Below are positions 7,350 through 28,221 of a stretch of DNA of 64,000 nucleotides, one piece after another. The notes below the pieces were generated by a model that was not told the origin of the DNA, searched no databases, and saw nothing but the letters and a program-made list of their open reading frames with translations. The stretch comes from Roseivivax sediminis (lineage in GTDB: Bacteria; Pseudomonadota; Alphaproteobacteria; Rhodobacterales; Rhodobacteraceae): positions 1 through 64,000 of the forward strand of contig NZ_FOMS01000005.1 in the NCBI RefSeq assembly GCF_900112685.1, read 5' to 3'. The position numbers and the translations under genes were made by a program. Every line of letters starts with the position of its first letter. The first letter of the stretch is position 1.

Positions 7350-7375
7350 CTGCCGTTCATGGGAGGTGCAGCGAA
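7347..7375. repeat. right copy of the bipartite direct repeat flanking the mer operon
   Basis: TAGCTGCCGTT, 10 bases, GCAGCGAA: identical blocks and spacing to the copy at 2654-2682. The first TAG is the merR stop codon. Confidence 0.55.
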
Positions 7376-7454
7376 GGTCGGCTCTCCGCCCACTCTTGCG
7401 ATGGCATGCGCTGTCGCGGCGGCTGCGAAGCATGCGCAGCCAACTACAGGAAGG

Positions 7455-7484
7455 TCCGCAGAGCCGATCGACACGATCTGCGGA
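7455..7484. promoter_or_regulatory. compound stem-loop after merR
   Basis: TCCGCA ... TGCGGA encloses a second dyad GATCG-ACA-CGATC, with a five-base bulge (GAGCC) on the left arm. It lies 105 bases after merR and about 60 bases before the recombinase module. It could be a merR terminator (a TTCTTTTTG run follows 11 bases later) or an end of the recombinase element. Confidence 0.4.
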
Positions 7485-7546
7485 TACCCCCGGTTCTTTT
7501 TGTCACTCTGCGATCGGAACCATCTCCTGCAAAACAGGAGATGCCC

Positions 7547-8341
7547 ATGCTTCCCTTCACGCGATTTCACGCCGCGACGCTCCTCGACCTGCACACTTGG
7601 TCGACGCTTTCGCGCAACGAGGTGCGCCCCTTCCTTGCCCGGTTCGCCATTGAACCGCTCGGTCGAAAATTCCCGATGCTGAGAGTTTATGAGCAACTGC
7701 TCGGCGTAACCCCATCGGATCCCCTCGAAGACGACATGCTCGGCCGGGGCCTGGTGCGAGCAACGAAGGCAGCGGAGTGGTTCGGTGTCTCCGGCGACGT
7801 TCTCCTGGACCAGCTCCGCGCGCCCGGCAATTCATACCCCCCGCTCTACGCGTTGGGGCCGAAGCGAAATCTGATGCTGAGGGCGCAGGTCGAGCAGCTT
7901 CTGGCGAGCCCCAGAAACGCATTTCATGGCCTGGACCCGATCCCTGGACATGCTCTGCCCGCCTCGCGCCTGGCGCGGACCCTCGGGGTTCCGCAAGCCC
8001 GGATCGACGCGATGCTCGCGGACAAGGACGTTCTGCCCGCGCGCATCATCAGCCGGGGACGCGTCCGCTACATCCTCTCGGACGTGGCGCACAGGCTCGC
8101 GTCCTCAGGTGAGGACCGCGTCACGGAGGAAGACCCCCGGGCCGAGGAGACAATCGAAGACGGCTCGGAAGTCGCGCCTGGCGCCACCGTCGGCGCGCCT
8201 GACGGCCTGTTCGCGGAGACCACGGCCCGCGCTGCCGCCCAAGCCGAAACGCAGCTCTCCTGCACAGGATCCGGCGCAAATGCACGCCGAGGCGATGGCC
8301 TGCACGGTGCGCCGGTCGAGGCGAAACTGTCGGGAACATAA
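7547..8341 (+). CDS. putative DNA-binding protein of a recombinase module
   Basis: The chosen start, ATG 7547, has AGGAG six bases upstream; an in-frame ATG at 7541 touches the ribosome site. The 264-residue product has two segments that look like excisionase-type helix-turn-helices. These are TKAAEWFGVSGDVLLDQLRA with an adjacent LYALGPKRNLMLRAQVE, and SRLARTLGVPQARIDAMLA with RGRVRYILSDVAHRLAS. The last 75 residues are acidic and alanine-rich. I do not recognise a characterised family. It leads a rightward cluster with three recombinase-type genes, so a role as a targeting or directionality factor is plausible but inferred. Confidence 0.65.
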   Translation: MLPFTRFHAATLLDLHTWSTLSRNEVRPFLARFAIEPLGRKFPMLRVYEQLLGVTPSDPLEDDMLGRGLVRATKAAEWFGVSGDVLLDQLRAPGNSYPPLYALGPKRNLMLRAQVEQLLASPRNAFHGLDPIPGHALPASRLARTLGVPQARIDAMLADKDVLPARIISRGRVRYILSDVAHRLASSGEDRVTEEDPRAEETIEDGSEVAPGATVGAPDGLFAETTARAAAQAETQLSCTGSGANARRGDGLHGAPVEAKLSGT

Positions 8342-8344
8342 GGC

Positions 8345-8409
8345 GTCGCTTAGTTCCCGGATATTTCGACTCGAGTGCACATTTTCGCTTCGTGTGCACG
8401 CCAAGCGAC
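8345..8409. repeat. dyad with two GTGCAC palindromes between module genes
   Basis: GTCGCTT (8345-8351) and AAGCGAC (8403-8409) are inverted around two copies of the palindrome GTGCAC (8375-8380 and 8394-8399), spaced 19 bases start to start. It fills the 79-base gap between the first two genes of the recombinase module. It might be a recombinase binding site or an operator. Confidence 0.35.
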
Positions 8410-8420
8410 CAATCTCCTCA

Positions 8421-8918
8421 ATGAACCAGATGAAAGGAAATCCCTTGGTTCCCAAGACCAAATACCAAAGCCGCATCGTTGCGAACCCGCTCGCCCAGAC
8501 GCCATTCACGCTTCGGGAAGTGTTCGAGCACGAACCCGATCAGCGCCTACAGTCCGCCCTGCGCCGGCTCGAAACCGTCCTCGACAGGCCCCTCGAGAAG
8601 ATTCCCGCGGACATCGACTGGTTCGATGCGCACTTTCCGAGCGGCGGCTTCGACGGTGCCAAGGCACCCTGGACCAGTGCCCAAGCCTACCAAGCTTGGC
8701 GCAGCGCCGTCCGCCGCGCCATCCGGAGGTACATCTTCGCGCTCGGCACGTCCGTCATGCGGATCCGTCACGTCCAGGCGAGCCTTCTCTCCCGGACGAA
8801 TGCGCCCCCCCACTCCCCGATCCCGGCAGCCCAGCTTCTCGGGCACACTGGCGTCAAGCGCACCAGGGCCCTTTACGCGAATTTCCGCAAAACCGCAGCC
8901 GCACCTAAGTCCGACTGA
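8421..8918 (+). CDS. shortened tyrosine-recombinase relative
   Basis: The 165-residue protein resembles the N-terminal domain of the 611-residue recombinase two genes on. Both share the pattern W/LFDA-FPS, then an A-Y/W-R-VRR-IR segment (AYQAWRSAVRRAIRRYIF here). It then jumps to a recombinase C-terminal box, QLLGHTGVKRTRALYANFR, with the His and a Tyr that would be the nucleophile. The middle of the catalytic domain, with both catalytic Arg residues, is missing. It looks like an in-frame internal deletion of a larger recombinase, and it cannot recombine DNA alone. ATG 8421 has no clear ribosome site; a TTG at 8445 preceded by AAAGGAAA is an alternative start. Confidence 0.6.
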   Translation: MNQMKGNPLVPKTKYQSRIVANPLAQTPFTLREVFEHEPDQRLQSALRRLETVLDRPLEKIPADIDWFDAHFPSGGFDGAKAPWTSAQAYQAWRSAVRRAIRRYIFALGTSVMRIRHVQASLLSRTNAPPHSPIPAAQLLGHTGVKRTRALYANFRKTAAAPKSD

Positions 8919-8983
8919 GCCCCGAAATCGCGCGGCCGTCCGGAACGTCGGCCGCCTCCCTACAACCCGATAAGGAATACCGA

Positions 8984-10819
8984 ATGGGTTTTTTCTCAGA
9001 TGCCTCGCAGGTCGCCACGGCCGTTGCAGTGCCTACCTCAAAAACCATGCAAACGGTGTTCGACGAGACCGTCAACGAAACCGAACGCAACCGTATTGCG
9101 CGGGTGGCCGAGTATTTCAACGCACCACTTTCGACCCTGGATGGCGACGAGGTCGACCTCCTGGCCTGGTTCGACGCAAATTTTCCGTCGCTCAAGCAGA
9201 TCGGTGCCGGACCGTTGCCGGGTGCAGGTCGGAACTTCTGGAAGTCGAAGGGCAGCTATGGCAAGTGGCGCGAGGTCGTCCGCCGCCGGATCAGGACCAC
9301 CCTTGGTCTCGTCGCTGCGAAGATGGCATTGCGGGAGCGCATCGACGGCTGGACCCCTTTCCTGGCCCTCCTGGAAGATCTCTCGAAAGACCACGGTCCG
9401 GTGCATCCCGGAACCTTTGGCTCGATCCGCACCTTTTCCGACCGCGCAAGAGCGGCCGGTATCGACCCGATGGATCTGACCCCTGACATCGTTCCGCCCT
9501 TCCTGGATCAAATGCCCGCCCACGAGCGAGACGCGTCGGCAACAGCTCTCAGAGCGCTTGCCCGCCACCGCGTCTTCCCACAGATCGCAGCACATCTGCC
9601 ACCGGACTTCGACACGGACTACCTCGTTCCGACGGCCCGCACACCCGTGCCCGCCTCCGTGCGCAAAATGATCGCCGAGATGGTGGAAGCGGCACGCTAC
9701 GACCAGAGCACCTATGATGATGTCTCCGAGAGTTGCACCGAGAATTTCAACGCGCAAACGGCCGAGACCTACCGCGCCGCCTTGGTCGCACTGGCCCGGG
9801 CCGCACAGGAAACCGGCGTTGTGGACCTGGCGTCGTTGAACTGTCTCGACTCGCTGTTCGAGACCCCGGTTCGCATCGCCGCCATCCGACATTGGATCGA
9901 CCAGTCCGAAACGGATGCCGGGTTCAGTCTTCGGAGCGCCGCAGATTACGTCCGCATCGTCGCCCAAATCGGCAAGGCTAATGGCCTCAAGACCAAGAAG
10001 TGGCTGAAGAACTTGAAGAAGAATCCGCACCTGCAGGAGGGACATGCGTCGGGCGAGAAGATGTCCCCCAAAAACAGGACCTTCTGCGAGGACCTCATCC
10101 ATAATCCAACCGATGTCCGGACCTTTCTCCGGCAGCACGTGCTCTACCAGGAGCGAGCGAAGGACATCCTCGCGACGGACAAGGTCTTGACCAAAACGCA
10201 ACTGCGCGATGCTCGGCGGCTTGCCACCTGCGCCGCCTTCTCCGCGCTGGCAATCCGTGGCGCCGGCCTGCGGAAAGGCAGTGCGCTGGCTGCAGAGTGT
10301 AGCGGCACCGGGCAGAATTTTTTCCGCAAGGCGATGGGCGAGAACAAATTCTTCGAACTGAGGATCCCCATCAAGGACATGAAAGGCGAGTATGTTGAGC
10401 TGCCCCCCATCCACATCCGGGATGACAAGTATTGCGGCTATGAGGTGCTCGATTGGTATCTGACCACAGCGCGGCCGCTCTTCGACTTCGCGAACAAGGA
10501 CTATTGTAAAAAGAAAAAATGCGCGAGGGCTTCTCATCTGTTCGTTTCGGAGCGATCCGCGCGCCCCCTGTCCGGGTCCATGCTCTACAAATGGCTAACC
10601 CGAAGCAGCGCAGAGATCGGCCTGCCGATGTTCCCGCACAATTTCCGGCATGGCTTCGCAACGCTGCTGCTCGCGCGGAATTGGAGCAACCGAGGGCGGG
10701 CAGCCGCGTATCTCGGCTGCTCGGTCGGCGTGCTCGACACCTATTACGGGTGGATCGACAAGCGGCAGAAGCTCGAGGAAGTGCAGGATCTCCTGGCGGA
10801 GGCTCTGGCCGGAAAATGA
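8984..10819 (+). CDS. large site-specific tyrosine recombinase (611 aa)
   Basis: The C-terminal third carries phage-integrase signatures: Arg430 in GAGLRKGSAL, Lys-containing strand IKDMKGEYVELP, His552-Asn-Phe-Arg555-His556 in HNFRHGFATLLL, and Tyr587/Tyr588 in LDTYYGWIDKR. The second catalytic His of box II is Cys here (YLGCSVG), an unusual substitution. About 400 residues precede the catalytic domain, with an N-terminal region shared with the shortened protein upstream and probable SAM-like core-binding segments. The stop overlaps the next recombinase start by ATGA, so the two are translated together. It resembles two-recombinase systems such as Tn554 in logic, but the target site is unknown. 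Confidence 0.8.
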   Translation: MGFFSDASQVATAVAVPTSKTMQTVFDETVNETERNRIARVAEYFNAPLSTLDGDEVDLLAWFDANFPSLKQIGAGPLPGAGRNFWKSKGSYGKWREVVRRRIRTTLGLVAAKMALRERIDGWTPFLALLEDLSKDHGPVHPGTFGSIRTFSDRARAAGIDPMDLTPDIVPPFLDQMPAHERDASATALRALARHRVFPQIAAHLPPDFDTDYLVPTARTPVPASVRKMIAEMVEAARYDQSTYDDVSESCTENFNAQTAETYRAALVALARAAQETGVVDLASLNCLDSLFETPVRIAAIRHWIDQSETDAGFSLRSAADYVRIVAQIGKANGLKTKKWLKNLKKNPHLQEGHASGEKMSPKNRTFCEDLIHNPTDVRTFLRQHVLYQERAKDILATDKVLTKTQLRDARRLATCAAFSALAIRGAGLRKGSALAAECSGTGQNFFRKAMGENKFFELRIPIKDMKGEYVELPPIHIRDDKYCGYEVLDWYLTTARPLFDFANKDYCKKKKCARASHLFVSERSARPLSGSMLYKWLTRSSAEIGLPMFPHNFRHGFATLLLARNWSNRGRAAAYLGCSVGVLDTYYGWIDKRQKLEEVQDLLAEALAGK

Positions 10820-12195
10820 CCCGTCATGTCATCCTCGCAAAGCCGCACTGGCAACCCAACGCGGCTTCTCCCATCCTGCTGGGCATGCCGCTCGCGGAGT
10901 TGCAGGCACTCGACAGCCTGGTCGAGTTCATGATCGAACATGGCTGCGCGGAACTCACGCCGTCCGACTGCCGGGTCTGGGCTCGCCTCAATGACGGCGC
11001 CGCCGCCATCGGCAATGCCGTCGCGGCAATGATCAAGACCGACGGTCCCGAAGCCCTGCCGCTTGCGTCCCTGCGTGCGGCAGAACAGTCCCTGACCGCT
11101 TGCACGCGCTTCGCCGGAATCTCGCGTGAGCCGCGTCGCGACTATGAACGGACCATCTCACTCTATCCAGAAGACCTTCCGGCGGAATGGCAACAGCACC
11201 TGGCCCGGATCCGGGACCGCAGAGAAGATGGCGAAATCAAGCTGGTGCCGGATCTCTACGACCGCATGACCCGGAAGCTCTGCCAATACGGCTGGTATCT
11301 GCGGGAAAGCGGGCTGGCGCAGGACTTCGAAATAGCCTCGCTCCGAAAATTCTATACCTATGAGACGACGAGAATTTCCGCCCGGGGCGCGCCACTGAGC
11401 ACCTCAACCATCATCGCGACATTCGCCGATCTCAGGGACTTCCTCCGGCTCTCGAAGGCCTACCCGAAGCCCCTGATCAAGCAAATCGACAAGCTTCTCC
11501 AGAAGCTGCGGGACCGGGCCAGCGTCGAGACGGCGCAGAAGTTCGCAGCCCTCGCCGCGATCGATATCACGACGATTCATCCGCGCGCCGAAGCAGTCCT
11601 CGCAGAGATCGTAAAGCAAACCAACCCGGCAAGGCGAGCCATCAAGCGCAATAGAGCCATGGCAATCGCGGTGCCGCCGCTGACCCCGCTCCGCCGCGAA
11701 TGGCATGATCTCAGGTTCGGCCGGGACCTGGTCTGGACCGAGGGCCGTTACCGCCTCCGGGACTACAAGCTCCGCAAGACCCGGCATCGTCCCGGCCGAG
11801 AGGAATACCCCGGTTCGGTGCATCCGAGCGTATGTCATTTCGTCGACGCCCGCCTGCTTCAGGATGATGACCCGAAATATCTCGATACCTTTCGCGAGAT
11901 CGCCGAGCAGCACGAATGGCCGCTATTCGTCCATCCCGACGGCACGCCCGTTGCCGAGAATTACGTGTCGCAGGTCTGGTCCTCGGAGTTCGGAACCGGC
12001 GCTCACATTTGCAGGTCCATCGTCTACGACGTGGTGTTCGCCATCAGCGAGGACGCGACGCTGGCCGGCATGTTGATGAATGACCACACCTCGCAGCAGG
12101 CGCGGAAGAAATACACCGGCGACCGCGCCAAACAGGCCTCCCTCGCAGCCGCCGGAAAGGAGATCGACGACATCTTCGATGCCTACAATGGATGA
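10816..12195 (+). CDS. site-specific tyrosine recombinase (459 aa)
   Basis: It starts within the stop of the preceding recombinase gene (ATGA). All core catalytic residues can be placed: Arg293 (PLRREWHDLRFG), a Lys-bearing strand (YKLRKTRHRPG), His397 and Arg400 (AHICRSIVYDVVF), His424 (MNDHTS) and Tyr433 (ARKKYTGDRA). A long helical N-terminal part (about 290 residues) should bind the core site. With the 611-residue partner it makes a pair of unequal recombinases, as in Tn554-like or recombinase-in-trio elements, yet the gene sizes and the extra small genes differ from those. It ends 70 bases before a convergent copper-section gene. Confidence 0.8.
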   Translation: MTRHVILAKPHWQPNAASPILLGMPLAELQALDSLVEFMIEHGCAELTPSDCRVWARLNDGAAAIGNAVAAMIKTDGPEALPLASLRAAEQSLTACTRFAGISREPRRDYERTISLYPEDLPAEWQQHLARIRDRREDGEIKLVPDLYDRMTRKLCQYGWYLRESGLAQDFEIASLRKFYTYETTRISARGAPLSTSTIIATFADLRDFLRLSKAYPKPLIKQIDKLLQKLRDRASVETAQKFAALAAIDITTIHPRAEAVLAEIVKQTNPARRAIKRNRAMAIAVPPLTPLRREWHDLRFGRDLVWTEGRYRLRDYKLRKTRHRPGREEYPGSVHPSVCHFVDARLLQDDDPKYLDTFREIAEQHEWPLFVHPDGTPVAENYVSQVWSSEFGTGAHICRSIVYDVVFAISEDATLAGMLMNDHTSQQARKKYTGDRAKQASLAAAGKEIDDIFDAYNG

Positions 12196-12265
12196 CGTGG
12201 AGACTCCGCGCGATACCGCAACGCAGATTGTAGACGAGACAGTCCGGGTGCCGTCACGCTCGCCG

Positions 12266-13108
12266 TCAGCCGCACGACCAGAAACCCCGGTAGCCTGCAG
12301 TCAGCCCCGCATCGAGGGCGAAGGTCAGTTCCGCGTTCCCCCGCCAGTCCGCGTCGTCTCCGAGCGGCCGAACCTCAATCTCCATGCCATCGGAGGCAAA
12401 GCCGGCCTTGCCATCGGACGATTGCAGACCGACAAGGACACCATTGAGCTTGGTCACGGCTTCGCCGTCCGGTCCGGACCACAGGATGGGGTCGGCCTCG
12501 GGACTGCGGTTGAAGCGGCATGCGCCCGGCGCGTCGATGACCCGGCTCGCCTCCTCCTCGGGGAGCGGCGAAAGGTCAAGTTTGGAAATCAGGGTGTTGT
12601 TCAGGGCGTCCTCGACGCTGCCCGGTTCGGCGGCGGGGTCTTCGTAGATGTCGTTGACCAGGTTGCCGCCGGAGACATCCGCGATCAGATGGCGCATCTG
12701 TGCGATCTCCTTGCGCTGCGCGGCGATGATCTCGTCGGCGAGCTTGCGCACGCGCGCGTCCTCGATCCCGGCCCGCTCCGACGTCATGACCGCGATGGAA
12801 TGGTGCGGGATCATCGCACGCATGTAGCTGGGCCCGCTGACGGTGACCTGGCTGCGCACCAGCCAGAGAGATCCGGCAAAGACGACCGCCGCGCCAAGAA
12901 AGATGGCGATGTTCAGCGCTTTGCTCGAATACATTGCCAGCATGAAGGACAGCATCACGATGGCCATCGTTGTCCCCATCAGGATGGCCATGTAGGCGCG
13001 CGTCTCGGAAAAGAAGAGATGCTCCCACGCGTAGGTGTTCAGATACATCAGGACGAACATGATGATCGTCGAAGTCGCGATCATCAGACCAAACCGAATA
13101 TAGGACAT
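12266..13108 (-). CDS. membrane-anchored DUF305 protein
   Basis: The 280-residue protein has three N-terminal membrane helices (about residues 5-25, 35-60 and 68-86). A periplasmic DUF305 motif follows, with MRAMIPHHSIAVMTSERAG near residue 100 and QMRHLIADVS. DUF305 proteins such as CopM bind copper through His and Met residues. A further domain of about 110 residues (from LISKLDLSPL to the end) ends with an acidic and Trp-containing stretch I do not recognise. It is the last gene of the leftward copper block and stands alone. A copper or silver sequestration role is inferred from the family and the neighbours. Confidence 0.75.
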   Translation of the reverse strand: MSYIRFGLMIATSTIIMFVLMYLNTYAWEHLFFSETRAYMAILMGTTMAIVMLSFMLAMYSSKALNIAIFLGAAVVFAGSLWLVRSQVTVSGPSYMRAMIPHHSIAVMTSERAGIEDARVRKLADEIIAAQRKEIAQMRHLIADVSGGNLVNDIYEDPAAEPGSVEDALNNTLISKLDLSPLPEEEASRVIDAPGACRFNRSPEADPILWSGPDGEAVTKLNGVLVGLQSSDGKAGFASDGMEIEVRPLGDDADWRGNAELTFALDAGLTAGYRGFWSCG

Positions 13109-13205
13109 GTCGCCTCCTCAATTGCCTTTAATTGAGTGTGAAACAACACTCCCGCGCTGGAGGGTTCCCCTTGTCGAACCTCGGGCCGGGTCTGGGACCG
13201 ACGGC

Positions 13206-13826
13206 TCAAACCCGTCGGAGCACAGCGAACTCGAAGTTTTGGGTTACCCCTCCCGGCGTCTCGTGCCGGTGCCTTCGCGTGTCCAGGAGCGAGAACTCAG
13301 GTGCGAAGAAGTCCGACAGATCGTCCGCGGACCAGCGCCTCACCGGCAGGCCGCTGCACCGCTCGGGGCCGTCTGGCGCGAAGGTGCCTATGATCGCCAC
13401 GGATCCGGGCACGGTGGCCGCCAGCATCGCCCGGCGATAGGCCTCCTGGCCGGACTCCGACACGAGGAAGTGCATCACCGCCCGATCATGCCAGACATCC
13501 CAGTGACGGGCCGGCTTCCAAGTAGTGACGTCGGCCACGATGAAACCGACCCGATCCGCCAAGGAGGCGAGGCGCTTTCTCGTCCGCGCGAGCGCCGATT
13601 CGGAGATATCCAGGATCGACAGGTCGCGATAGCCTGACGCCAAGAGCGCATCCGCAAGGCGCGAAGCCCCGCCGCCGATGTCGATGACCGATGCCGCGTT
13701 GCCGCCGCCGTGGCGCTCTATCAGATCAAGGCTTGGCTGCGGCACCGCCTGGAACCAGGACACGGCCTCTTCTTCGCGCGACTCGTAGACCGCATCCCAG
13801 TGCGCTCTGTCCCCGGTTCCCGTCAG
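13206..13826 (-). CDS. class I SAM-dependent methyltransferase
   Basis: The protein (206 residues) shows HWDAVYESR at the start, the SAM-binding motif VIDIGGGASRLAD, ILDISESALAR, then FIVADVTTW and WHDRAVMHFL. No ATG or GTG fits. The best start is a CTG at 13826 that overlaps the cueR stop (CTGA) and has GGGAG five bases upstream; a start inside cueR at 13895 is the alternative. It is translationally coupled to cueR in the copA-cueR operon. The substrate is unknown. Small methyltransferases of this kind recur next to thiol and metal-stress genes, but no function is claimed. Confidence 0.75.
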   Translation of the reverse strand: MTGTGDRAHWDAVYESREEEAVSWFQAVPQPSLDLIERHGGGNAASVIDIGGGASRLADALLASGYRDLSILDISESALARTRKRLASLADRVGFIVADVTTWKPARHWDVWHDRAVMHFLVSESGQEAYRRAMLAATVPGSVAIIGTFAPDGPERCSGLPVRRWSADDLSDFFAPEFSLLDTRRHRHETPGGVTQNFEFAVLRRV

Positions 13827-14248
13827 CGGACTCCCTCTGATGCACTGGCCGCCTCTTCCGGAACATCCTTCGCCAGGTCCTCCAGAATCGGGCAATCCGG
13901 GCGGTGGTCGCCCGCGCAGGCATGGATCAGGTGACCAAGCGTCGTGCGCATCGACTGGAGTTGCGCGATCTTGTCGTCGATCTGGTGCAGGTGCTCTTCC
14001 GCGACGCGCTTGACCTGCCCGCTCTCGCGGCTCTCGTCCTCGTAGAGGGCGATCAGGGTGCGGCAGTCCTCGATGGTGAAGCCCAGCGCGCGGGCGCGGC
14101 CGAGGAAGGCCAGCTTGTGCAGGTCCTGTTCGCGGAACCGGCGATAGCCGTTCTCGCCGCGCTGCGGGCGGATCAGGCCGATCTCCTCGTAGTAGCGGAT
14201 CGTCTTGGCGGGCAGGCCCGAGCGTTGGGCGACGTCTCCGATGTTCAT
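13823..14248 (-). CDS. cueR: Cu(I)-responsive MerR-family regulator CueR
   Basis: The 141-residue regulator has a MerR winged helix (MNIGDVAQRSGLPAKTIRYY), a dimerisation helix and the metal loop ACAGDHRPDCP with Cys111 and Cys119, the two ligands typical of CueR. It lies 13 bases after copA and is transcribed with it. It should activate promoters that have 19-base spacers when Cu(I) or Ag(I) binds. Four promoters with the shared box TTGACCTTCCA occur in this window (copA, copZ, the DUF2933-like gene and the second copper ATPase) and are the probable targets. Confidence 0.92.
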   Translation of the reverse strand: MNIGDVAQRSGLPAKTIRYYEEIGLIRPQRGENGYRRFREQDLHKLAFLGRARALGFTIEDCRTLIALYEDESRESGQVKRVAEEHLHQIDDKIAQLQSMRTTLGHLIHACAGDHRPDCPILEDLAKDVPEEAASASEGVR

Positions 14249-14261
14249 GGCAGTCCTCCTT

Positions 14262-16769
14262 TCACTCTGCGGGCGCGTGCGCCGCGTGGGCGGCCGGGCG
14301 TGCTATGGCGCGCTCGTCCATGGCGGGCGCGATGCGGCGCAGGCGCAGCGCGTTGGTCAGCACGAAGACCGACGAAAGCGCCATGGCCCCGGCGGCCAGC
14401 ATCGGCGAGAGCAGCAGGCCGAAGGCCGGGTAGAGCACGCCTGCCGCGACCGGGATCAGCGCGGTGTTGTAGCCGAAGGCCCAGAACAGGTTCTCGCGGA
14501 TGTTGCGCATGGTGCGGGTCGAGACCTCGAAGGCGTTGACCACGCCGCGCAGGTCGCCGGACATGAGCACCACGTCGGCGGACTCGATCGCCACGTCCGT
14601 GCCGGTGCCGATGGCGATGCCGACGTCGGCATGCGCCAGCGCGGGCGCGTCGTTGATGCCGTCGCCGACGAAGGCGACCTGGCGGTGCCCCTCGCGCAGC
14701 TCATCGAGCGCGGCGACCTTGCCGTCGGGCAGGACGCCCGCGATGACATGGTCGATGCCAGTCTCGCGCGCGATGGCCTCTGCCGTCTCGCGTTTGTCGC
14801 CGGTGATCATCGCGACGGTCAGGCCCTTGTCATGCAGCGCGGCGATGGCGGCGCGGCTGGCGGGCTTCACGGGGTCGGCCACGCCGATGACCGCGGCGAT
14901 GCGGCCGTCGATGGCGGCAAAGAGCGCGGTGCGGCCGCGGCTGGCAAGCTCGGTCTCGCGCGCCGCGAGCGCGCCGGTCTCGATGCCCTCGCGGGCCATC
15001 AGGCGGTCGGCGCCGACCAGCACCTCGGCGCCGTCCACCGTGGCGCGGACGCCGTGGCCGGTGACGGAGGTGAAATCCGTGGCCTCGGCGCGCGGGGCGC
15101 CCTCTGCCCGGGCGGCGCGGACGACGGCCTCGGCGATGGGGTGCTCGGAGCGCGACTCGACCGCCGCGACCTTCGACAGCACGTCGGCCCGGTCGACCCC
15201 CTCGGCCAGCACGAGGTCGGTCATCTCGGGCCGTCCCTCGGTCACGGTGCCGGTCTTGTCGAGCGCCACGACGCCCACGGAGGCGAGCTGCTGCAGCGCG
15301 TTACCCTTGCGGAAGAGGACGCCCATCTCGGCGGCGCGGCCGGTGCCGACCATGATCGAGGTCGGCGTCGCGAGGCCCATGGCGCAGGGGCATGCGATGA
15401 TGAGAACCGAGACCCCGGCCACCAGCGCCAGCGTCACCGCGGGCGACGGGCCGAAGACCAGCCAGACCAGCACGGTCAGCAGCGCCGCCGACATGACGGC
15501 GGGCACGAACCACAGGGTGATGCGGTCGACCAGCCCCTGGATCGGCAGCTTGGCGCCCTGCGCCTCCTCGACCATGCGGATGATCTGCGACAGCGTGGTG
15601 TCGGCGCCGACGCGGGTGGCGCGGAAGGTCAGGCTGCCCGCGCCGTTCACGGTGCCGCCGGTGATGGCATCGCCCGGGCCCTTCTCGGCCGGGACCGGCT
15701 CGCCGGTGAGCATGCTTTCGTCGACGTGGCTGGAGCCCTCGGTGACCTCGCCGTCCACGGCGATGCGCTCGCCCGGCCGCACGAGGACCATGTCGCCGGT
15801 CGCGAGGTCATCGACCGAGACCTCGACGCTTTCGCCGTCGCGCAGGACGCGGGCGGTGCGGACCTGCAGGCCCAGCAGCTTGCGGATCGCCGCGCCGGTG
15901 CGGCCCTTGGCGCGCGCCTCGAGGAAGCGCCCGAGCAGGATCAGCACGACGATGACGGCGGCGGCCTCGAAGTAGACGGCGCGCACCGCCTCGGGGAGCA
16001 GCGCCGGAAGGAAGGTCGCCACGACCGAGTAGAGGTAGGCCGCCCCGGTGCCCACGGCGACGAGGCTGTTCATGTCGGGCGCGCCCTTGAGCAGCGCCGG
16101 GATGCCCTTGCGGTAGAACATGCGCCCGGGGCCCGCGAGGACCAGCGTGGTCAGCACGAACTGCAGCACCCAGCTGGTCTGCTGGCCGATGGTCGCGTCG
16201 ATCCAGTGGTGCACGGCGGGAAGGACGTGCCCGCCCATCTCGACCAGGAAGACCGGCAGGGCGAGCGCGGCGGCGAGCGCCGTCTGGCGCAGGAGGCCGC
16301 GCGCCTCCTCTTCCTTGCGGGCGCCGCGGTCCTCGCCGCCGGAGGCCTCGGCCACCGTGGCGGGGTAGCCCATCTCGGCGCTGGCGGCGGTCAGGTCAGA
16401 GGGCGTGACCGCGCCCTCGGCGTAGGTCACCGTCGCGGTTTCCGAGGCGAGGTTCACGTTCACTTCGAGCACGCCCGGCACGGCCTCGAGCGCCTTGTCG
16501 ACGCGACCCACGCAGGAGGCGCAGGACATCGACTCGACGTTCAGCGTCACCTTCGCCCGGCGCGCCGGGTAGCCCAGGTCGTCGAGCGCCTCGACCGCTG
16601 CGCCTACACGCGCGGGATCGTCGACGGTCATGCGGGCGGTTTCCGAGGCGAGGTTGACCGAGACGTCATGGACCCCCTCCAGCGCCGCCAGGCCACGATC
16701 CACGCGCCCCACGCAGGAGGCGCAGGACATACCCTCGACGGAGAGAGTGACGGGCGTTGGTTCGGGCAT
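14262..16769 (-). CDS. copA: Cu(I)-exporting P1B-type ATPase CopA
   Basis: The start at 16769 ([11 protein letters not shown]) is preferred because AAGGAGG lies five bases upstream; an ATG 15 bases earlier has no spaced ribosome site. The 835-residue pump has two HMA domains (GMSCASC and SMSCASC) and eight expected membrane helices. The Cu(I) motif is [10 protein letters not shown], the phosphorylation site [11 protein letters not shown], and the actuator region is [20 protein letters not shown] provides the HP motif and [17 protein letters not shown] the hinge. It exports cytoplasmic Cu(I) to the periplasm. It is first in an operon with cueR and a methyltransferase gene, driven by a CueR-type promoter. 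Confidence 0.96.
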
Positions 16770-16801
16770 GACGGCCTCCTTCATTCCTCTTGGCTGCCCC
16801 T

Positions 16802-16832
16802 CATGTGGGGCCTCCAGTCACTGGAAGGTCAA
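16802..16832 (-). promoter_or_regulatory. CueR-type promoter of copA
   Basis: On the minus strand -35 TTGACC (16827-16832), a 19-base spacer with the dyad CTTCCAG-TGA-CTGGAGG, and a weak -10 CACATG (16802-16807). The 19-base spacer and the dyad are the hallmark of MerR/CueR-activated promoters. Confidence 0.85.
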
Positions 16833-16869
16833 GCGTGCGGATGAATTTTCTTCGCGGTGACCGGCCCTC

Positions 16870-16900
16870 TTGACCTTCCACCCGCTGGAATCCTCATATC
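16870..16900 (+). promoter_or_regulatory. CueR-type promoter of copZ
   Basis: TTGACC (16870-16875), 19-base spacer containing TTCCA-N5-TGGAA, and -10 CATATC (16895-16900). It is back to back with the copA promoter, 37 bases apart, so one regulator can fire both genes. Confidence 0.85.
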
Positions 16901-16931
16901 TGCGGCGAAGCAAACGCAAGGAGACGTCGCA

Positions 16932-17132
16932 ATGCAATTCAATGTGCCCGACATGCGCTGCGGCCACTGCACGGCTGCCATCGAGAAATCGGTCAAGGCC
17001 GCCGACCCCGGCGCCGATGTCGCCTGCGACCTGGACACGCACCGGGTCAGCATCAACAGCGTCCTCGCGCCGGAGCAGGTGAGCGCGGCGATCAAGGACG
17101 CGGGCTACGACGCACAGCAGGTCAGCGCCTGA
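16932..17132 (+). CDS. copZ: copper chaperone CopZ-like HMA protein
   Basis: The 66-residue protein is a single HMA domain with the motif PDMRCGHCTAAIEKS and the usual beta-alpha repeats ending in AAIKDAGYDAQ. AAGGAGA lies eight bases before ATG 16932. It should bind Cu(I) in the cytoplasm and deliver it to the divergently encoded CopA. Its promoter is CueR-type. It stands as a single gene and converges on the DsbA-like gene 40 bases further on. Confidence 0.9.
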   Translation: MQFNVPDMRCGHCTAAIEKSVKAADPGADVACDLDTHRVSINSVLAPEQVSAAIKDAGYDAQQVSA

Positions 17133-17172
17133 CCATGGCCCGCGCCGGTCATCGCTGGCGCAGAGCTTACCG

Positions 17173-17904
17173 TCACTGCGAAGAATCGCGTGCCTCGCTC
17201 ACCAGATCGGAGAGACGCTCTTTCTCGACGAAGCCGGGCACGAGCGCGTCGCCGATGACGAAGGACGGCGTCCCATTGAACCCGAGCGCCTGCGTCAGGC
17301 GCATCGAGGTTTCAATGTGCTCGGCAACTTCCTGGGCCTCCATGTCCTGTCTCAGTTGATCCAGGTCCAGCCCGACGTCTTCGGCGACACGCATGACTGA
17401 GGCTTCGTTCGCGCGGCCATCAATCGCCATCATCGCCCAGTGAAAGTCTTCGTACTTGCCTTGCGCACGGGCCGCGAGCGCCGCCTTGGCGGCAAAGACG
17501 GATCCTTCGCCGAGGATGGGCCATTCGCGGTAGACGAGCCGGACGTTCGGGTCTTCCTCGATCAGGGCCCGGATCTCCGGTTTTGCGCGGCGGCAATAGG
17601 GGCAGTTGTAGTCGAAGAACTCCACCACGGTCACATCGCCGTCCGGGTTGCCGAGCACGGGCGCGTTCGGATCATGCTCGATCAGGTCACGCTGGTTGCG
17701 CAGCACGTCCGACTGGTTCTGGGCCTGGGCATCCGCCTGCCGCTGTTCGAGCAGCGCGACCGCCTCCATGATGATCTCGGGGTTCTCGCGTATCGCCTCG
17801 AGGACCAGTTCCTTGACCCGCGCCTCGTCAAGCTCCTGGGAGAGCGCAGGCATCGGCAGCAGGGCTGCCATCGCCAGCGCAAGGATCGGTTTCTTCAGCG
17901 TCAT
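17173..17904 (-). CDS. DsbA-family periplasmic thiol-disulfide protein
   Basis: The start at 17904 (MTLKKPILALAMAALLPMPA) follows the upstream stop by one base and has GGAG about eight bases before it. The 243-residue protein has a signal peptide, a helical N-terminal region (about residues 20-75), then a thioredoxin fold with FFDYNCPYCRRAKPE as the CxxC active site. The cis-Pro loop is near FNGTPSFVIGD. This architecture matches the Com1/ScsC-like branch of DsbA proteins. It follows the cytochrome c and multicopper oxidase genes in one operon, so it probably protects or oxidises thiols of copper-exposed periplasmic proteins. Confidence 0.88.
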   Translation of the reverse strand: MTLKKPILALAMAALLPMPALSQELDEARVKELVLEAIRENPEIIMEAVALLEQRQADAQAQNQSDVLRNQRDLIEHDPNAPVLGNPDGDVTVVEFFDYNCPYCRRAKPEIRALIEEDPNVRLVYREWPILGEGSVFAAKAALAARAQGKYEDFHWAMMAIDGRANEASVMRVAEDVGLDLDQLRQDMEAQEVAEHIETSMRLTQALGFNGTPSFVIGDALVPGFVEKERLSDLVSEARDSSQ

Positions 17905-17905
17905 T

Positions 17906-18373
17906 TCAGTTCGCTCCATTGTCCGCTTTCGTTCGTTCTGCCTGGGCTTGTTTCACGTCTTCGGGCCAGGTCGAGCGGATGTAACCCAGAATGTTTCGGA
18001 TCTGTTGATCCGTCAGGCTGTCACCGAAACCCGGCATGCCACTGCCGAATTCCATGCCACGTTGCGCCATCAGGGCCTCTCCGCCCAGCTTGGTATAGTC
18101 GAACAGGACGCTGTCCGGGTGATGCCAGGTATGACCCGTCTCGTCATGCGGCGGCGCCGGCAGACGCCCATCGGGGCCGGGTGAGCGCCAGTCGGGCTGG
18201 CCCTCAAGCTCGGCTCCGTGGCAGGAGGCGCAGTTCTCGGCGTAGAGCGCCTTGCCTTCGGCGATGTCCACCGGCGCCGCAGAGGCATTCTCGGTCGTCC
18301 CCTGCCCGAGGACGAACCAGAAGCCCGCAGCCGCAAGAACCGCGAAGACTGTCCCGATGACAACGCCCCTCAT
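17906..18373 (-). CDS. monohaem c-type cytochrome
   Basis: The start at 18373 overlaps the multicopper oxidase stop (ATGA). The 155-residue protein has an N-terminal membrane anchor or signal (VVIGTVFAVLAAAGFWFVLG), the haem motif CASCHG and a likely Met ligand in SGMPGFGDSLTDQQI. This fold is the class I small cytochrome c. It is placed directly after the multicopper oxidase, so it may supply or accept electrons for oxidation at the copper site. An ATG 15 bases upstream is also possible. Confidence 0.88.
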   Translation of the reverse strand: MRGVVIGTVFAVLAAAGFWFVLGQGTTENASAAPVDIAEGKALYAENCASCHGAELEGQPDWRSPGPDGRLPAPPHDETGHTWHHPDSVLFDYTKLGGEALMAQRGMEFGSGMPGFGDSLTDQQIRNILGYIRSTWPEDVKQAQAERTKADNGAN

Positions 18374-19761
18374 GTGACCCGCACCCATGTCGTCATGCCC
18401 GAGGCCGCGTGACCGAGCATGTGGCAGTGGAACAGCCAGTCGCCGGGATTGTCGACGGTGAAGGCGATCTCGCGCGTCTCCCTGCCGCCAACAAGGATCG
18501 TGTCCCGAAGCGGTCCCAACGCGCCGTCCTCGGACACCTCTCGGAAATGCATGCCGTGCAGGTGCATGGCGTGGGGAAAAACGGTGTCGTTGACGATCTC
18601 CAGCAGCACGGTCTCGCCCAGCCCCAAGTCGGCCAGCGGCGTATCTGTCATCTCTGCCACGCCGTTGAATGCCCAGAACCGACCCGCGGCCGCCAATTCG
18701 CGGAAAGCCATGCGTTCGCCGTTCAGGATGGCGGAGTCCATGCGCCCCATCGCGCCGCCCGACATGACGAGCCGCAGCGGAGTCGCCCCGGCCAGGTCCG
18801 GCAGATCCATCTTCGGGTTCGGCGGCAGGGCCACGGGCGCCGCGCGCCGCGTCTGGCTGGCCGTGCCCGACACAGTGAAAACGACCTGCGAAAAATTCTC
18901 GGCATCGCCGACATGGACCAGGTCTGCCGTTTCCCCTTCTTCTGCCAAAACGTCGACGATCAGGTCCGTCCGCTGTGCCGGGCCAAGGACAAGGACATGC
19001 TCCACCGGGGCTGGCGTGGCGAGCGGCATCCCGTCCAGGGCCACGATCCAGCCCTCCAGCCCCGACAGCTTCAGCGGGAAAATCCGGGCGTTCGATGCGT
19101 TGATCAGTCGCAGGCGCAGCCGCTCGTGCCGTCGCACGGGCAGCGACAGGTTGTAACGCCCGTTGGTGGTGACGTAATTCCCGGTGCGTCCGCCGTGGCT
19201 CATCATCATGGGATGGTCGAAACTGTCGTCGATCTGGCCTGTCTCGGGGTTCAGCAACCAGTCGTCGAGAACGAGCACCTCTTCACGATCGACATCCGGC
19301 GCCCCGGCCTCCTCGACGATCAGCGGGCCATGCAGCCCGCGTGCCACCTGTTCCCAGGACCTGTTGTGCGCGTGATACCAGTAGGTCCCGGCATCCGGCG
19401 TCACGAAATCGTAGTCGAAGGTGCCGCCTGGCGCGACGGCGTCCTGCGTCAGGCCTGATACCCCGTCCATCGCATTGTCGATGCGGATCCCGTGCCAGTG
19501 GATCGAACTGGCCTGCGGCAGGTCGTTGACAAAGCGCCGGCGCAGGCGCTGGCCCTGCCCCACCCGGATCTCGCGTCCCGGGATGGTGCCGCCATAGCCC
19601 CAGACCTCGGTCTGCGGGTAACTGTCGGGCAGCAATTGAAGCCGAGCGACCTGAGCCGCGAGTTCGGGGATCTCCTCGGCGGCGAAGAGCCCCCGCGGGA
19701 GGCCCGCGCCAAGCCCAGCAAGTCCGGCCAGCTTCAGGGCATCACGCCTTGTGGGTGTCAT
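18370..19761 (-). CDS. multicopper oxidase, periplasmic
   Basis: The 463-residue enzyme starts with a twin-arginine signal (MTPTRRDALKLAGLAGLG). The four copper-ligand motifs are present: SSIHWHGIRI, YWYHAHNRS, HAMHLHGMHF and WLFHCHMLGHAASGM. These build one type 1 site and the trinuclear cluster. A Met- and Gly-containing stretch (VMSGGAMGRMDS) could be a substrate copper site. It resembles CueO/CopA-type cuprous oxidases that oxidise Cu(I) in the periplasm with oxygen. It starts an operon-like run with cytochromes on both sides. Folding before Tat export is expected. Confidence 0.92.
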   Translation of the reverse strand: MTPTRRDALKLAGLAGLGAGLPRGLFAAEEIPELAAQVARLQLLPDSYPQTEVWGYGGTIPGREIRVGQGQRLRRRFVNDLPQASSIHWHGIRIDNAMDGVSGLTQDAVAPGGTFDYDFVTPDAGTYWYHAHNRSWEQVARGLHGPLIVEEAGAPDVDREEVLVLDDWLLNPETGQIDDSFDHPMMMSHGGRTGNYVTTNGRYNLSLPVRRHERLRLRLINASNARIFPLKLSGLEGWIVALDGMPLATPAPVEHVLVLGPAQRTDLIVDVLAEEGETADLVHVGDAENFSQVVFTVSGTASQTRRAAPVALPPNPKMDLPDLAGATPLRLVMSGGAMGRMDSAILNGERMAFRELAAAGRFWAFNGVAEMTDTPLADLGLGETVLLEIVNDTVFPHAMHLHGMHFREVSEDGALGPLRDTILVGGRETREIAFTVDNPGDWLFHCHMLGHAASGMTTWVRVT

Positions 19762-19805
19762 CGGTTCATTCCTTTCAGAGCGGGGCCGATGGCCCCGCCG
19801 TTTTC

Positions 19806-20759
19806 TCAGTCGATCCGGGTCTTCCGCTCTGCGGACCCCCCTTCTTCCTTCACGATGTCGTCTGCCCCGCCTACCTCCGCGTCGAACAGGTAGATCGCCA
19901 TCGCCTCGCGATCCTGTGGAGACAGGAACCGCGTGCCTTCGCGGACGACCTCGGCCATGCTGCCGCCAAAGGCGTCGCCCGAGGGCGTGAGGCCCGATTG
20001 CAGCGCATAGGCCAGCGACGAGACCGTCCATCCGTTCTGTTCGAGGTCTTCGGCCCGGATGGACGGCGCCTTGCTGCCGCCCGGAAGCTCGGCATTGCCG
20101 GCGAAGACGGCGCCAAGGTCGCGGCCGCCCGCCAGGTTCCGCGGCGTGTGGCAGGCCCCGCAATGCGCCGCGCCGCGCACGAGTTCGCGGCCCCGGTTCC
20201 ACGCGTCGCTGCGATCCGGCACAGGCTCTGACTTAGGCTCGTAGAAAAACGCGGCGCGCCAGAGTTTCAACCCCCACCGCTGGTCGAAGGGAAAGCTCAC
20301 GTCATGATAGGGCGCGGGCTCGGCCACCGGCGCCACGGTCTGGAACGCTGCCCAGAGATCGGCGATGTCCTGGTCCGAGAACTCCGCGTAGAACGGATAG
20401 GGGAAGGCCGGGAAATAAGGTTCGCCGTCCGGGCCTATGCCCTGGCGAACCGCCTTGGCAAAGCTCTCTGCCGTCCAGTCTCCGATCCCGTGCTCCGGGT
20501 CCGGGGTCAGGTTCGACGGGTAGAAGGTGCCGAAATCCGTCTCGAGCGGAGCGCCGCCCGCCAGGGGAGCGCCTCCTGCCTCGAAATTCGAATGACAGGC
20601 GATGCAGCCGCTGGCGCGCGCCAGGTAGGCACCCCTGTCGACGTTACCCTCCAGCTCGATCGGCGCGGGTGCGCTGCCGACCGGCCATGCGATCACCGCG
20701 GCCAGGGCGGCGCCGCCAAGCGCCGCCGCCCCGACCGACCAATAGATTATCCGACGCAT
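19806..20759 (-). CDS. dihaem c-type cytochrome, membrane-anchored
   Basis: The 317-residue protein has an N-terminal hydrophobic anchor (WSVGAAALGGAALAAVIAW) and two haem motifs, SGCIACHSNFE and AHCGACHTPRN. Likely Met or His axial ligands lie further on (for example GGSMAEVV). It resembles the dihaem cytochrome subunits of alcohol and gluconate-type dehydrogenases. It lies 44 bases upstream of the multicopper oxidase gene and 2 bases after the cytochrome c-prime gene. The electron-transfer partner is unknown, but its position suggests a link to the copper oxidase. Confidence 0.88.
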   Translation of the reverse strand: MRRIIYWSVGAAALGGAALAAVIAWPVGSAPAPIELEGNVDRGAYLARASGCIACHSNFEAGGAPLAGGAPLETDFGTFYPSNLTPDPEHGIGDWTAESFAKAVRQGIGPDGEPYFPAFPYPFYAEFSDQDIADLWAAFQTVAPVAEPAPYHDVSFPFDQRWGLKLWRAAFFYEPKSEPVPDRSDAWNRGRELVRGAAHCGACHTPRNLAGGRDLGAVFAGNAELPGGSKAPSIRAEDLEQNGWTVSSLAYALQSGLTPSGDAFGGSMAEVVREGTRFLSPQDREAMAIYLFDAEVGGADDIVKEEGGSAERKTRID

Positions 20760-20761
20760 GG

Positions 20762-21370
20762 TCAGTCGTCTTCCGCCCGGAACCGCGAATGGCAGGCCGA
20801 GCAGACCTGCGTCGTCATGTTGAACGCCGCATCGGCCGGCATTTCGGCGATGTCCTCCGCGCTCATCATGTCGGACGCGTCATCGCCCATCATGCCCGAG
20901 CCAGAGCCCATCATGGACCCGCTTCCCATCATGGAGCCGGACCCCATGCCGGAGCTGCCTCCCATCATGGATCCTGCGCCCATGTTGCCGCCACCCGCCA
21001 TGCCGTTGCCGGCGGCGCCTTCCAGGCCCTCGCCGTAGACGTCGAGCAACCTCGCAAGCTCCTCGAACCGCTCCCAGTCCGACCAGATCACGTCCTTGGC
21101 TTCGGAGGGTGCCCCGTCGGAGCCTTCCGGGAACAGCTCGGTCAGGGCCTCGCCCGAATGCTCCTGGAAGGTGCGCGCGGCGTCGCGCATGACATCGGCG
21201 TCATACTCGGCCTCGCCCTGCATCATCGGGGTGACCGTCTTCACGGCGTTGCCCATGGCCTTCATTGCTTCCATGCGTTCCTTGACGATGCCCGTCGCGC
21301 CGCTGTGTGCGAGGGCGGCCGCCGCCGTTCCAGTCACGGCGATTGCTGCCAGAATGGTCGTTCTCTTCAT
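20762..21370 (-). CDS. cytochrome c-prime family protein with Met/Gly-rich insert
   Basis: The start at 21370 (MKRTTILAAIAV) gives a good signal peptide. The 202-residue protein has the four-helix cytochrome c-prime pattern (RMEAMKAMGNAVK, helix with WSDWERFEELARLL) and the C-terminal haem motif TTQVCSACHSRFR (Cys190, Cys193, His194). Between helices three and four it carries about 45 residues of repeated Gly-Ser-Met units (for example GSMMGSGSMMGSGSG). Such Met clusters bind Cu(I) in other copper proteins. Cytochromes c-prime normally bind NO or CO, so the insert makes this a candidate copper-linked variant. It is part of the cytochrome run. Confidence 0.85.
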   Translation of the reverse strand: MKRTTILAAIAVTGTAAAALAHSGATGIVKERMEAMKAMGNAVKTVTPMMQGEAEYDADVMRDAARTFQEHSGEALTELFPEGSDGAPSEAKDVIWSDWERFEELARLLDVYGEGLEGAAGNGMAGGGNMGAGSMMGGSSGMGSGSMMGSGSMMGSGSGMMGDDASDMMSAEDIAEMPADAAFNMTTQVCSACHSRFRAEDD

Positions 21371-21413
21371 CGTATCGTTACTCCGTCGTCCTGAATTCCG
21401 GTTCATGGGTTGT

Positions 21414-22216: not shown

Positions 22217-22245
22217 GTACCTGTCTTTCTTTCTCTTTCCGAAAC

Positions 22246-22812: not shown

Positions 22813-22914
22813 CTGCCTGTGTCCTTCTTCCTTGCCTGTTCCAAGAAGATGAATACCCGAGAAGGTGCGTGCGACAACCTGACAAGCCTGCGAGAAATGT
22901 ATCGGTTTGTATCC

Positions 22915-22945
22915 TTGACCTTCCACTCCGGGAGGGCGGCAAATG
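22915..22945 (+). promoter_or_regulatory. CueR-type promoter upstream of the DUF2933-like gene
   Basis: TTGACC (22915-22920), 19-base spacer with TTCC-ACTCC-GGGAGG, weak -10 CAAATG (22940-22945). It shares TTGACCTTCCA with three other sites in the window. Because the -10 covers the ATG at 22943, the downstream start at 22976 is preferred for the gene. Confidence 0.7.
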
Positions 22946-22975
22946 AAGCGACAATTTCTGAAGGATGAGGCGACC

Positions 22976-26157: not shown

Positions 26158-26165
26158 GGGGTCTC

Positions 26166-28166: not shown

Positions 28167-28221
28167 GATGTCTGTCCCTCTGTCTGTCTTTCACTGGTCC
28201 TGATGCGTCACGCCTCGCGCC

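What the first reader, a model, noticed from the sequence alone, without database searches (positions are those of the whole stretch)
7547..12195. Four-gene tyrosine-recombinase module of unfamiliar layout
Seen: a DNA-binding-like protein, an internally shortened recombinase, a 611-residue and a 459-residue tyrosine recombinase in one direction; the two large genes overlap by ATGA. Known: Tn554 carries two unequal recombinases and a small helper, and recombinase-in-trio elements carry three. Sizes and the extra genes here do not match either. Inference: a self-contained mobile element or integration machine placed between the mer and copper parts. This is the best candidate for an undescribed system in the window.
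Basis: partly seen in the sequence, partly recalled or inferred. Interest (0 to 1): 0.75.

Follow-up and report, generated by a model that had tools for sequence, protein, structure and literature searches.

The report
Two-recombinase operon inside a dusA island
A small gene set that looks built to cut and join DNA (a DNA-binding helper and two unlike recombinases) recurs in marine Rhodobacterales bacteria, here inside a larger island with copper-resistance genes; it resembles known multi-recombinase elements in plan, but matched neither of the two kinds it could be tested against.

Summary
The four reading frames are real. Three of them form a conserved operon: ORF1 (AlpA/excisionase-like HTH), ORF3 (611-aa tyrosine recombinase) and ORF4 (459-aa divergent tyrosine recombinase) stand in order on one strand in 34 of 41 loci scanned. 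Catalytic residues are kept: R-K-HxxR-Y in 15 of 15 rows for ORF3, R-K-R-Y in 14 of 14 for ORF4. ORF2 is not in the conserved set: it is an internally deleted tandem relative of ORF3, open and partly constrained in some genomes, frameshifted or gone in others. All significant relatives found lie in Rhodobacterales. The module is not shown to be a self-contained element between mer and copper genes. It lies inside a dusA-type island whose right end, at window 37.92 kb, abuts the displaced 5' end of dusA; the dusA body, with a conventional integrase beside it, is on another contig. The copper cargo accompanies the module in four other genomes; mer was not seen beside it in 16 other loci. Tn554-like and RIT proteins match only generically; GInt, SE and GMT proteins were not obtained. 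Verdict: a new variant of the multi-tyrosine-recombinase kind; ends and activity unproven.

The parts
7367..7494 (.). left border zone: similarity to near relatives starts at 7367-7385 (L063, L064, L167), about 7480 (L066) or 7494 (L065, L067, L171), with different DNA to the left
   Evidence: blastn and alignment
7521..7543 (+). hairpin CATCTCCTG-CAAAA-CAGGAGATG that pairs the Shine-Dalgarno bases of ORF1; in other subfamilies the stem sequence varies with pairing kept
   Evidence: of 25 loci folded, SD-like bases all paired in 14, nearly all in L024 and L079, partly in L078; 8 loci show no SD-like motif there.
7547..8341 (+). ORF1, 264 aa, AlpA/excisionase-like helix-turn-helix protein; directionality or regulatory role inferred
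8445..8918 (+). ORF2, shortened recombinase: N-terminal domain joined to a C-terminal RH..H..Y tail; internally deleted tandem relative of ORF3
8984..10819 (+). ORF3, 611-aa tyrosine recombinase with a long N-terminal part; R430, K467, H552, R555, Y588 invariant
10816..12195 (+). ORF4, 459-aa divergent tyrosine recombinase; R293, K321, R400, Y433 invariant, H397 in 12 of 14 rows
12196..37506 (.). cargo including CueR-, copper P-ATPase-, CopZ- and multicopper-oxidase-like genes; syntenic with the module in G306 and G320 to about 37.5 kb, and in L167 and L171 as far as those loci reach (window 22192)
37507..37960 (.). conserved right-end segment of the island; also 0.7 kb after ORF4 in G201 and after the cargo in G306
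37921..37987 (-). att core TCCAATCCATCATGGGTGC and the displaced 5' end of dusA (reverse strand reads ...SAARLSVAPMMDW)

Best explanation
ORF1-ORF3-ORF4 is a recombination operon of two dissimilar, probably cooperating tyrosine recombinases with an AlpA/Xis-like HTH helper. By its make-up it most likely integrates and excises an element or sub-element through a mixed recombinase complex, with ORF1 as directionality factor. A 5' hairpin that hides ORF1's ribosome-binding site probably keeps the helper low until needed. ORF2 is a product of tandem duplication and internal deletion of the large recombinase gene. In this genome the module rides inside a dusA-type island, whose own insertion at dusA is most simply explained by the conventional integrase next to the dusA body. 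Shown here: gene conservation and order, intact catalytic residues, all significant relatives in Rhodobacterales, position beside a displaced dusA 5' end, predicted hairpin pairing. Inferred: continuity of the island across contigs, mixed complex, directionality role, translational gating, mobility.
For: All three genes in order on one strand in 34 of 41 loci; of the other seven, L069, L075 and L174 end at a contig edge, L023 is cut by an IS, L027 stands beside what I read as IS21-type genes, L071 and L074 are fragments. Catalytic residues invariant. dN/dS 0.14-0.22 for ORF3 and 0.08-0.14 for ORF4, 15 pairs each. HTH_17, AlpA and excisionase hits in some ORF1 relatives. Relatives of ORF3 on 8 Rhodobacterales plasmids and two modules in the own genome suggest horizontal spread. 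Different DNA abuts nearly the same left border in near relatives. Displaced dusA 5' end at window 37921; dusA body and a 436-aa Phage_integrase-family protein at G000:C17. In G121 one contig shows dusA, integrase, module and displaced dusA 5' end in a row over about 37 kb. Integrases similar to that 436-aa protein (E 1e-25) occur in 17 of 32 module-bearing and 52 of 362 other family genomes, Fisher p 1.5e-6.
Against: No excision, circle or empty site was seen. No terminal repeat common to the loci: the GGAACCATC inverted pair at both ends occurs in L063 and L067 only (p about 0.04-0.05); single longer matches in L073 (inverted, p 0.01) and L030 (direct, p 0.01) are unrelated to it. Conservation between members ends about at the genes. 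The dusA integrase could explain all movement of this island. ORF4 has no family hit and its model is poor (pLDDT 48, best Cre match E 0.25). The hairpin was not found in 8 of 25 loci, mostly the plasmid-type subfamily. ORF1 of L064 has an early stop in the aligned stretch.
Confidence: 0.58

Rival explanations
1. The module is itself the machine that inserts the whole island at dusA, and the conventional integrase at dusA belongs to a separate neighbouring island.
For: The displaced dusA end lies 1.1 kb (G201), 2.0 kb (L081) and 2.8 kb (L080) after ORF4, and the right-end segment is about as diverged as the module: 96% and 90% against 95% and 89% in G306 and G201. G306 and G320 have another integrase at dusA than the window's genome.
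Against: The module's left border shows no dusA core. An integrase of this type lies beside dusA in 11 of 18 module-bearing genomes whose dusA region was read. G306 also holds a 95% piece of the window genome's 436-aa integrase on another contig, which could account for its right end. Module copies occur where dusA has no such integrase beside it (G006, G377, G182, G436, G171, G176) and on plasmids where none was found in the stretches read.
Confidence: 0.12
2. It is a far-diverged member of a known multi-recombinase family (GInt, SE, Tn554-like, RIT or GMT).
For: Same general make-up: unequal tyrosine recombinases plus a small helper, resistance cargo downstream (papers). A 125-137-aa protein follows ORF4 in L016, L073, L077 and L080, in the place of GinD. 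ORF3's profile gives 16.6 bits (E 1.6e-6 in a set of 11) to the 404-aa recombinase of the pNL1 Tn554-like element, which fits the shared catalytic domain.
Against: All other scores of the three profiles against the pNL1 trio and two RIT trios of pHG1 are 9.3 bits or less. The HTH gene comes first, not last. No plasmid hit outside Rhodobacterales at 1e-5 among 72,556 records; at E 5 the outsiders found have E 0.2 or worse. GInt, SE and GMT proteins were not compared.
Confidence: 0.15
3. The operon is not a mover but a resident accessory of islands and plasmids, for example an inversion switch, dimer resolution or a defence function.
For: No termini or empty site found; conservation ends about at the genes.
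Against: Two recombinases with an AlpA-like helper is the usual make-up of integration modules (established knowledge). No test for an inversion target was made.
Confidence: 0.15

Closest known systems
dusA-specific genomic islands with their integrases (Farrugia et al. 2015, PMC4482086; abstract and sections 13, 15, 18 read)
   Same: For the island, not the module: insertion at the 5' end of dusA, displaced 5' fragment at the far end, replaced dusA start, integrase beside the dusA body, diverse cargo
   Different: The paper names the single integrase as the only universal feature; here a separate two-recombinase operon is present as well. The integrase here was not compared with the paper's proteins
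GInt genomic islands (Bardaji et al. 2017, PMC5385486; abstract and Results read)
   Same: Recombinase operon at one end, variable cargo that can include copper and mercury resistance, several integrases plus a small helper
   Different: ginABCD has three integrases with the helper last; here the HTH comes first and two recombinases are conserved. GinC lacks the first arginine; ORF3 and ORF4 both keep it
SE elements (Idola et al. 2023, PMC10214605; abstract, first part of Background, one Results section and passages seen)
   Same: Two unequal catalytic tyrosine recombinases
   Different: SE order is intA-tfp-intB plus srap, synteny blocks reported in Gammaproteobacteria only, 13-19 bp imperfect terminal inverted repeats
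Tn554-like elements (pNL1 example; PMC3414803, passages and one section seen)
   Same: One long and one shorter tyrosine recombinase, overlapping genes in one direction, a small helper
   Different: In pNL1 the shorter recombinase is first and the helper last; only generic similarity by profile
RIT elements (pHG1 examples; PMC3414803, passages seen)
   Same: Overlapping recombinase genes in one direction
   Different: Three recombinases of 314-412 aa in the two trios used, no HTH gene in the trio; profile scores at most 9.3 bits

Membership tests
GInt | operon ginABCD: three integrases followed by a small helper | tested here: not met
   Conserved order is HTH, recombinase, recombinase; ORF2 is a deleted duplicate. 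A similar small gene follows ORF4 in 4 of 25 loci examined
GInt | sequence homology to GinA-D | not tested
   No GInt protein sequence was obtained
GInt | flanking imperfect direct repeats of 10-17 nt | tested here: inconclusive
   Exact matches only, 70 nt before ORF1 against 250 nt after ORF4 in 24 loci: one direct 10-mer (L030, p 0.01); the right end of the unit is unknown
SE | gene order intA-tfp-intB plus srap | tested here: not met
   Order differs: HTH first, then two adjacent recombinases
SE | 13-19 bp imperfect terminal inverted repeats | tested here: inconclusive
   Longest exact inverted match 10 nt (L073), 9 nt in L063, L066 and L067; imperfect repeats not sought
SE | sequence homology to IntA, Tfp, IntB, Srap | not tested
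   No SE protein sequence was obtained
Tn554-like | TnpA, TnpB, TnpC homologues in the order short recombinase, long recombinase, helper | tested here: not met
   Order differs. Profiles A1-A3 against the pNL1 trio: 16.6 bits for ORF3 against the 404-aa recombinase, 2.2 bits or less otherwise
RIT | three overlapping recombinase genes ritA-B-C | tested here: not met
   Two conserved recombinases; profiles against two pHG1 trios at most 9.3 bits
GMT (gamma-mobile-trio, recalled) | match to GMT family models | tested here: inconclusive
   No model with a GMT name is among the NCBIfam hits of ORF1, ORF3 and ORF4 relatives at E 0.1. NF040692, which I recalled as GMT-related and the tool names recomb_assoc, does not match the own genome. 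No GMT protein was compared
dusA-specific island (the surrounding island) | displaced dusA 5' end at one end; dusA with replaced 5' end and integrase at the other | tested here: met
   Window 37921 and G000:C17:38587-41130; the two ends are on different contigs, so continuity is inferred
Tyrosine recombinase superfamily (ORF3, ORF4) | R-K-HxxR-(H/W)-Y catalytic residues | tested here: met
   ORF3 R, K, H, R, Y in 15 of 15 rows; ORF4 R, K, R, Y in 14 of 14, H in 12 of 14, and L072 and L073 outside the alignment also lack it; the later H/W position varies in both

The most novel reading that the evidence does not exclude
A previously undescribed class of integrative elements confined to Rhodobacterales: an obligate pair of unlike tyrosine recombinases with an AlpA-like switch whose synthesis is gated by an RNA hairpin, living as a second recombination system inside dusA islands and on plasmids, and in one lineage keeping a natural mini-recombinase (ORF2: N-terminal domain plus catalytic tail without the first arginine) as competitor or regulator.
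Probability: 0.25. Interest if true: 0.7.

Novelty: new variant of a known kind. Interest (0 to 1): 0.48.

Why it matters
Why several mobile elements need two or three different tyrosine recombinases is an open question. This family offers a compact, well-conserved two-recombinase case with intact catalytic residues in both partners, an attached directionality-type protein, and a natural series of ORF2 states. It is carried with copper-resistance genes in marine bacteria and would show how islands stack separate recombination systems.

Tried and rejected
Module bounded by terminal inverted repeats: GGAACCATC/GATGGTTCC around L063 and L067 looked promising but is absent at that place in the other 22 of 24 loci. 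Empty site through plasmid relatives: the one long flank match of L018, Sulfitobacter sp. SK025, stops beside an IS21; L016 gave only its sister module and transposase matches among the 12 rows listed of 101 records. Empty site through the left flank of G403: among 61 genomes only G403 itself matched over its length, four others over 27-41 bases. Viral contigs: no relative of ORF3. Phage records: none at E 0.01.

ORF0 (about 765 aa) as an obligatory part: it is left of ORF1 in L067, L070 and L171, with its tail in L065 and shorter similar frames in L029, L076 and L077; it is downstream in L017, L073, L078 and L079 and was not found in the window. Its structure model failed (pLDDT 42). The 8.5 kb block shared by L078 and L079 as a complete element: its right border coincides with a gene end and no 8-mer direct repeat was found. 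A first alignment of the hairpin region was out of register for L068 and was dropped; one search folded each locus alone with mononucleotide shuffles (z from +0.9 to -8.0; -1.7 for L070 and -1.9 for L024 are weak). No covariation count was made.

ORF2 as a plain pseudogene: not fully accepted. 7 of 10 pairs show synonymous excess at p below 0.015; the pairs are not independent and transition bias was not corrected. Against function: window-L063 shows none (p 0.59), L063 has lost the H and the Y of the tail, L066 is frameshifted, the window has TTG for ATG. The own second module (L025) was followed for gene content only.
Full report
What is there. Searches confirm the four reading frames and the ATGA overlap: ORF1 7547-8341, ORF2 8445-8918, ORF3 8984-10819, ORF4 10816-12195. 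Family searches of the window proteins give only weak generic recombinase hits for ORF3 (Phage_integrase 0.0036, Xer-type models 5e-6 to 3e-5, all below cut-off, plus a TarS_linker hit at 0.0036 that I take for chance) and nothing convincing for the others.

Conservation. ORF3 relatives occur in 9 of 101 near genomes, own genome included, and ORF4 relatives in 32 of 394 genomes of the family. Among 72,556 plasmid records ORF3 hits 8 and ORF4 5 at 1e-5, all Rhodobacterales; with the limit at E 5, ten more records appear, the best outsider at E 0.2. No phage record of 50,697 hits ORF3 at 0.01. A profile of ORF4 finds only the own genome among 385 genomes drawn from the class and among 299 from the phylum; the first look scores only four or five candidates per genome, so a distant relative could be missed. 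With profiles of the three families, 34 of 41 loci hold ORF1, ORF3 and ORF4 in this order on one strand. I count L070, whose ORF4 runs to the contig end and so is not in the ORF list; L022 has an IS between ORF1 and ORF3, and L029 has ORF4 split. The seven others are L023 and L027 (beside IS genes), L069, L075 and L174 (contig edge), L071 and L074 (fragments). Some of the 41 are near-duplicates (L065 and L171; window and L167), and 28 of the 41 contributed to, or are close to, the rows from which the profiles were built.

Catalysis. In the 15-row alignment of ORF3, R430, K467, H552, R555 and Y588 are invariant. In the 14-row alignment of ORF4, R293, K321, R400 and Y433 are invariant and H397 is present in 12; L072 and L073, outside that alignment, also lack this His. 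A nine-row model of ORF4 is poor (pLDDT 48), yet eight of its nine best PDB matches are Cre or its variant Tre, at E 0.25 or worse. The residue scheme is recalled. dN/dS is 0.14-0.22 for ORF3 and 0.08-0.14 for ORF4 over 15 pairs each, 0.15-0.39 for ORF1 over 10 pairs.

ORF1. Of 13 aligned members, four hit HTH_17 and one AlpA at 1.4e-7; excisionase and BldC-type models are hit weakly. The role as directionality factor is inferred from these families. Just upstream lies a hairpin that pairs the Shine-Dalgarno bases: of 25 loci folded, 14 have all SD-like bases paired, L024 and L079 nearly all, L078 in part; in the other 8, mostly the plasmid-type subfamily, no SD-like motif was found in that place. 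Stems differ between subfamilies with pairing kept (for example L072, L073, L030).

ORF2. It shares an N-terminal domain with ORF3 and ends in a recombinase-like tail. The same internal deletion is seen in window, L063, L064, L065 and L067, and a corresponding frame is open in L167 and L171. L066 is frameshifted, G006 keeps 38 codons, L068 only traces, L070 nothing. L073 carries an independent duplicate of its own ORF3 N-terminus at the same place. Pairs between the two clades show synonymous excess (p 2.5e-5 to 1.9e-2); window-L063 does not (p 0.59), and L063 has changed the histidine and tyrosine of the tail. So ORF2 arose by duplication and deletion and was probably translated for a time, or still is, in part of the lineage.

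Context. The window is the start of contig C5 of a 4.6 Mb genome. The nearest named relative is Pseudooceanicola marinus SY-2-17 (L167), 97.8% over window 7368-22192, where the locus ends; to its left lies an inverted copy of window 326-1795 instead of mer. Module and right-hand cargo are shared at 94-97% with L171 and G306 and at 83-88% with G320; G306 and G320 have insertions within it. Similar copper-region genes lie on the other side of the module in L068. Names of cargo genes rest: CueR and a copper P-ATPase above NCBIfam cut-offs, CopZ-like and multicopper-oxidase-like proteins; MerA at 4459-5874 is above its cut-off. The mer block 2698-7316 is about 81% like Phaeobacter plasmids and was not found beside the module in 16 other loci. 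At window 37507-37960 a segment recurs in G201, 0.7 kb after ORF4, and in G306 after the cargo; at 37921 it abuts the displaced 5' end of dusA. The dusA body of this genome is at C17:38587-39531, with a 5' end shared with G403 and G201, and a 436-aa Phage_integrase-family protein starts 0.3 kb away. This is the anatomy of dusA-specific islands (PMC4482086). The two ends are on different contigs, so continuity is inferred; in G121 the whole order is on one contig.

Is the module tied to dusA islands? Integrases similar to the 436-aa protein (E 1e-25) are found in 17 of 32 module-bearing and 52 of 362 other genomes (Fisher p 1.5e-6); not all need lie at dusA. Where dusA regions of module-bearing genomes were read, 11 of 18 have such an integrase beside dusA (in G201 with a stop near the contig end); G006, G377, G182, G436, G171 and G176 have none and G346 at most a fragment. 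The plasmid stretches read show none. So the link is preferential, not obligatory; relatedness of genomes was not corrected for.

Borders. In near relatives the left border falls at 7367-7385, about 7480 or 7494, with different DNA beyond. On the right, similarity fades within about 60 bases after the ORF4 stop unless the cargo is shared. No terminal repeat common to 24 loci was found. ORF0, a roughly 765-aa protein whose relatives score against the ORF3 profile (for example 2e-14 in L070), lies left of ORF1 in some loci, downstream in others, and in many was not found.

Comparison. GInt: abstract and Results read. SE: abstract, first part of Background, one Results section and passages. Tn554-like and RIT: passages and one section. 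Profile tests against the pNL1 Tn554-like trio and two pHG1 RIT trios give one generic score of 16.6 bits and 9.3 or less otherwise. The listings of the literature searches showed no paper describing this operon in Rhodobacterales; the library holds only open-licence papers.

Conclusion. A conserved two-recombinase operon of the multi-recombinase kind, in a variant layout, riding in a dusA-type island. What it moves, and whether it still does, is untested.

Noticed in passing
window 37921-37987: Displaced 5' end of dusA marks the right end of a dusA-type island that reaches leftwards beyond the start of the window.
   Followed up: yes
G000:C17:38587-41130 (L130): dusA body with an island-supplied 5' end and a 436-aa integrase; nearly the same 5' replacement in G403 and G201.
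   Followed up: partly
G000:C3 about 358500-362800 (L025): A second, distant copy of the three-gene module in the own genome.
   Followed up: partly
L171 4354-6648, L070 5285-7600, L078 13449-15542: ORF0, a large protein with distant similarity to the ORF3 profile, found near many modules at varying places.
   Followed up: partly
L016 11734-12147; also after ORF4 in L073, L077, L080: A small protein of about 125-137 aa follows ORF4 in four loci, in the position of GinD.
   Followed up: partly
L078 7752-16307 and L079: An 8.5 kb block at 89.7% identity holds module, small genes and ORF0 in different surroundings.
   Followed up: partly
L182 1443-5200 (pHG1 47442-51199): Two overlapping 626-aa genes (integrase, hypothetical protein) among RIT elements; the profiles of this report do not match them.
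   Followed up: no
L067 16414-19797, L078 16656-19476, L077 from about 12560 (all oriented): The same gene block (read as nnrS/pseudoazurin by eye) lies downstream of three otherwise unlike modules.
   Followed up: no
window 326-1795: Present in inverted orientation directly left of the module in Pseudooceanicola marinus SY-2-17 (L167 5059-6527, 99%).
   Followed up: no
window 2698-7316: Mercury-resistance block about 81% identical to Phaeobacter plasmids, abutting the module.
   Followed up: partly
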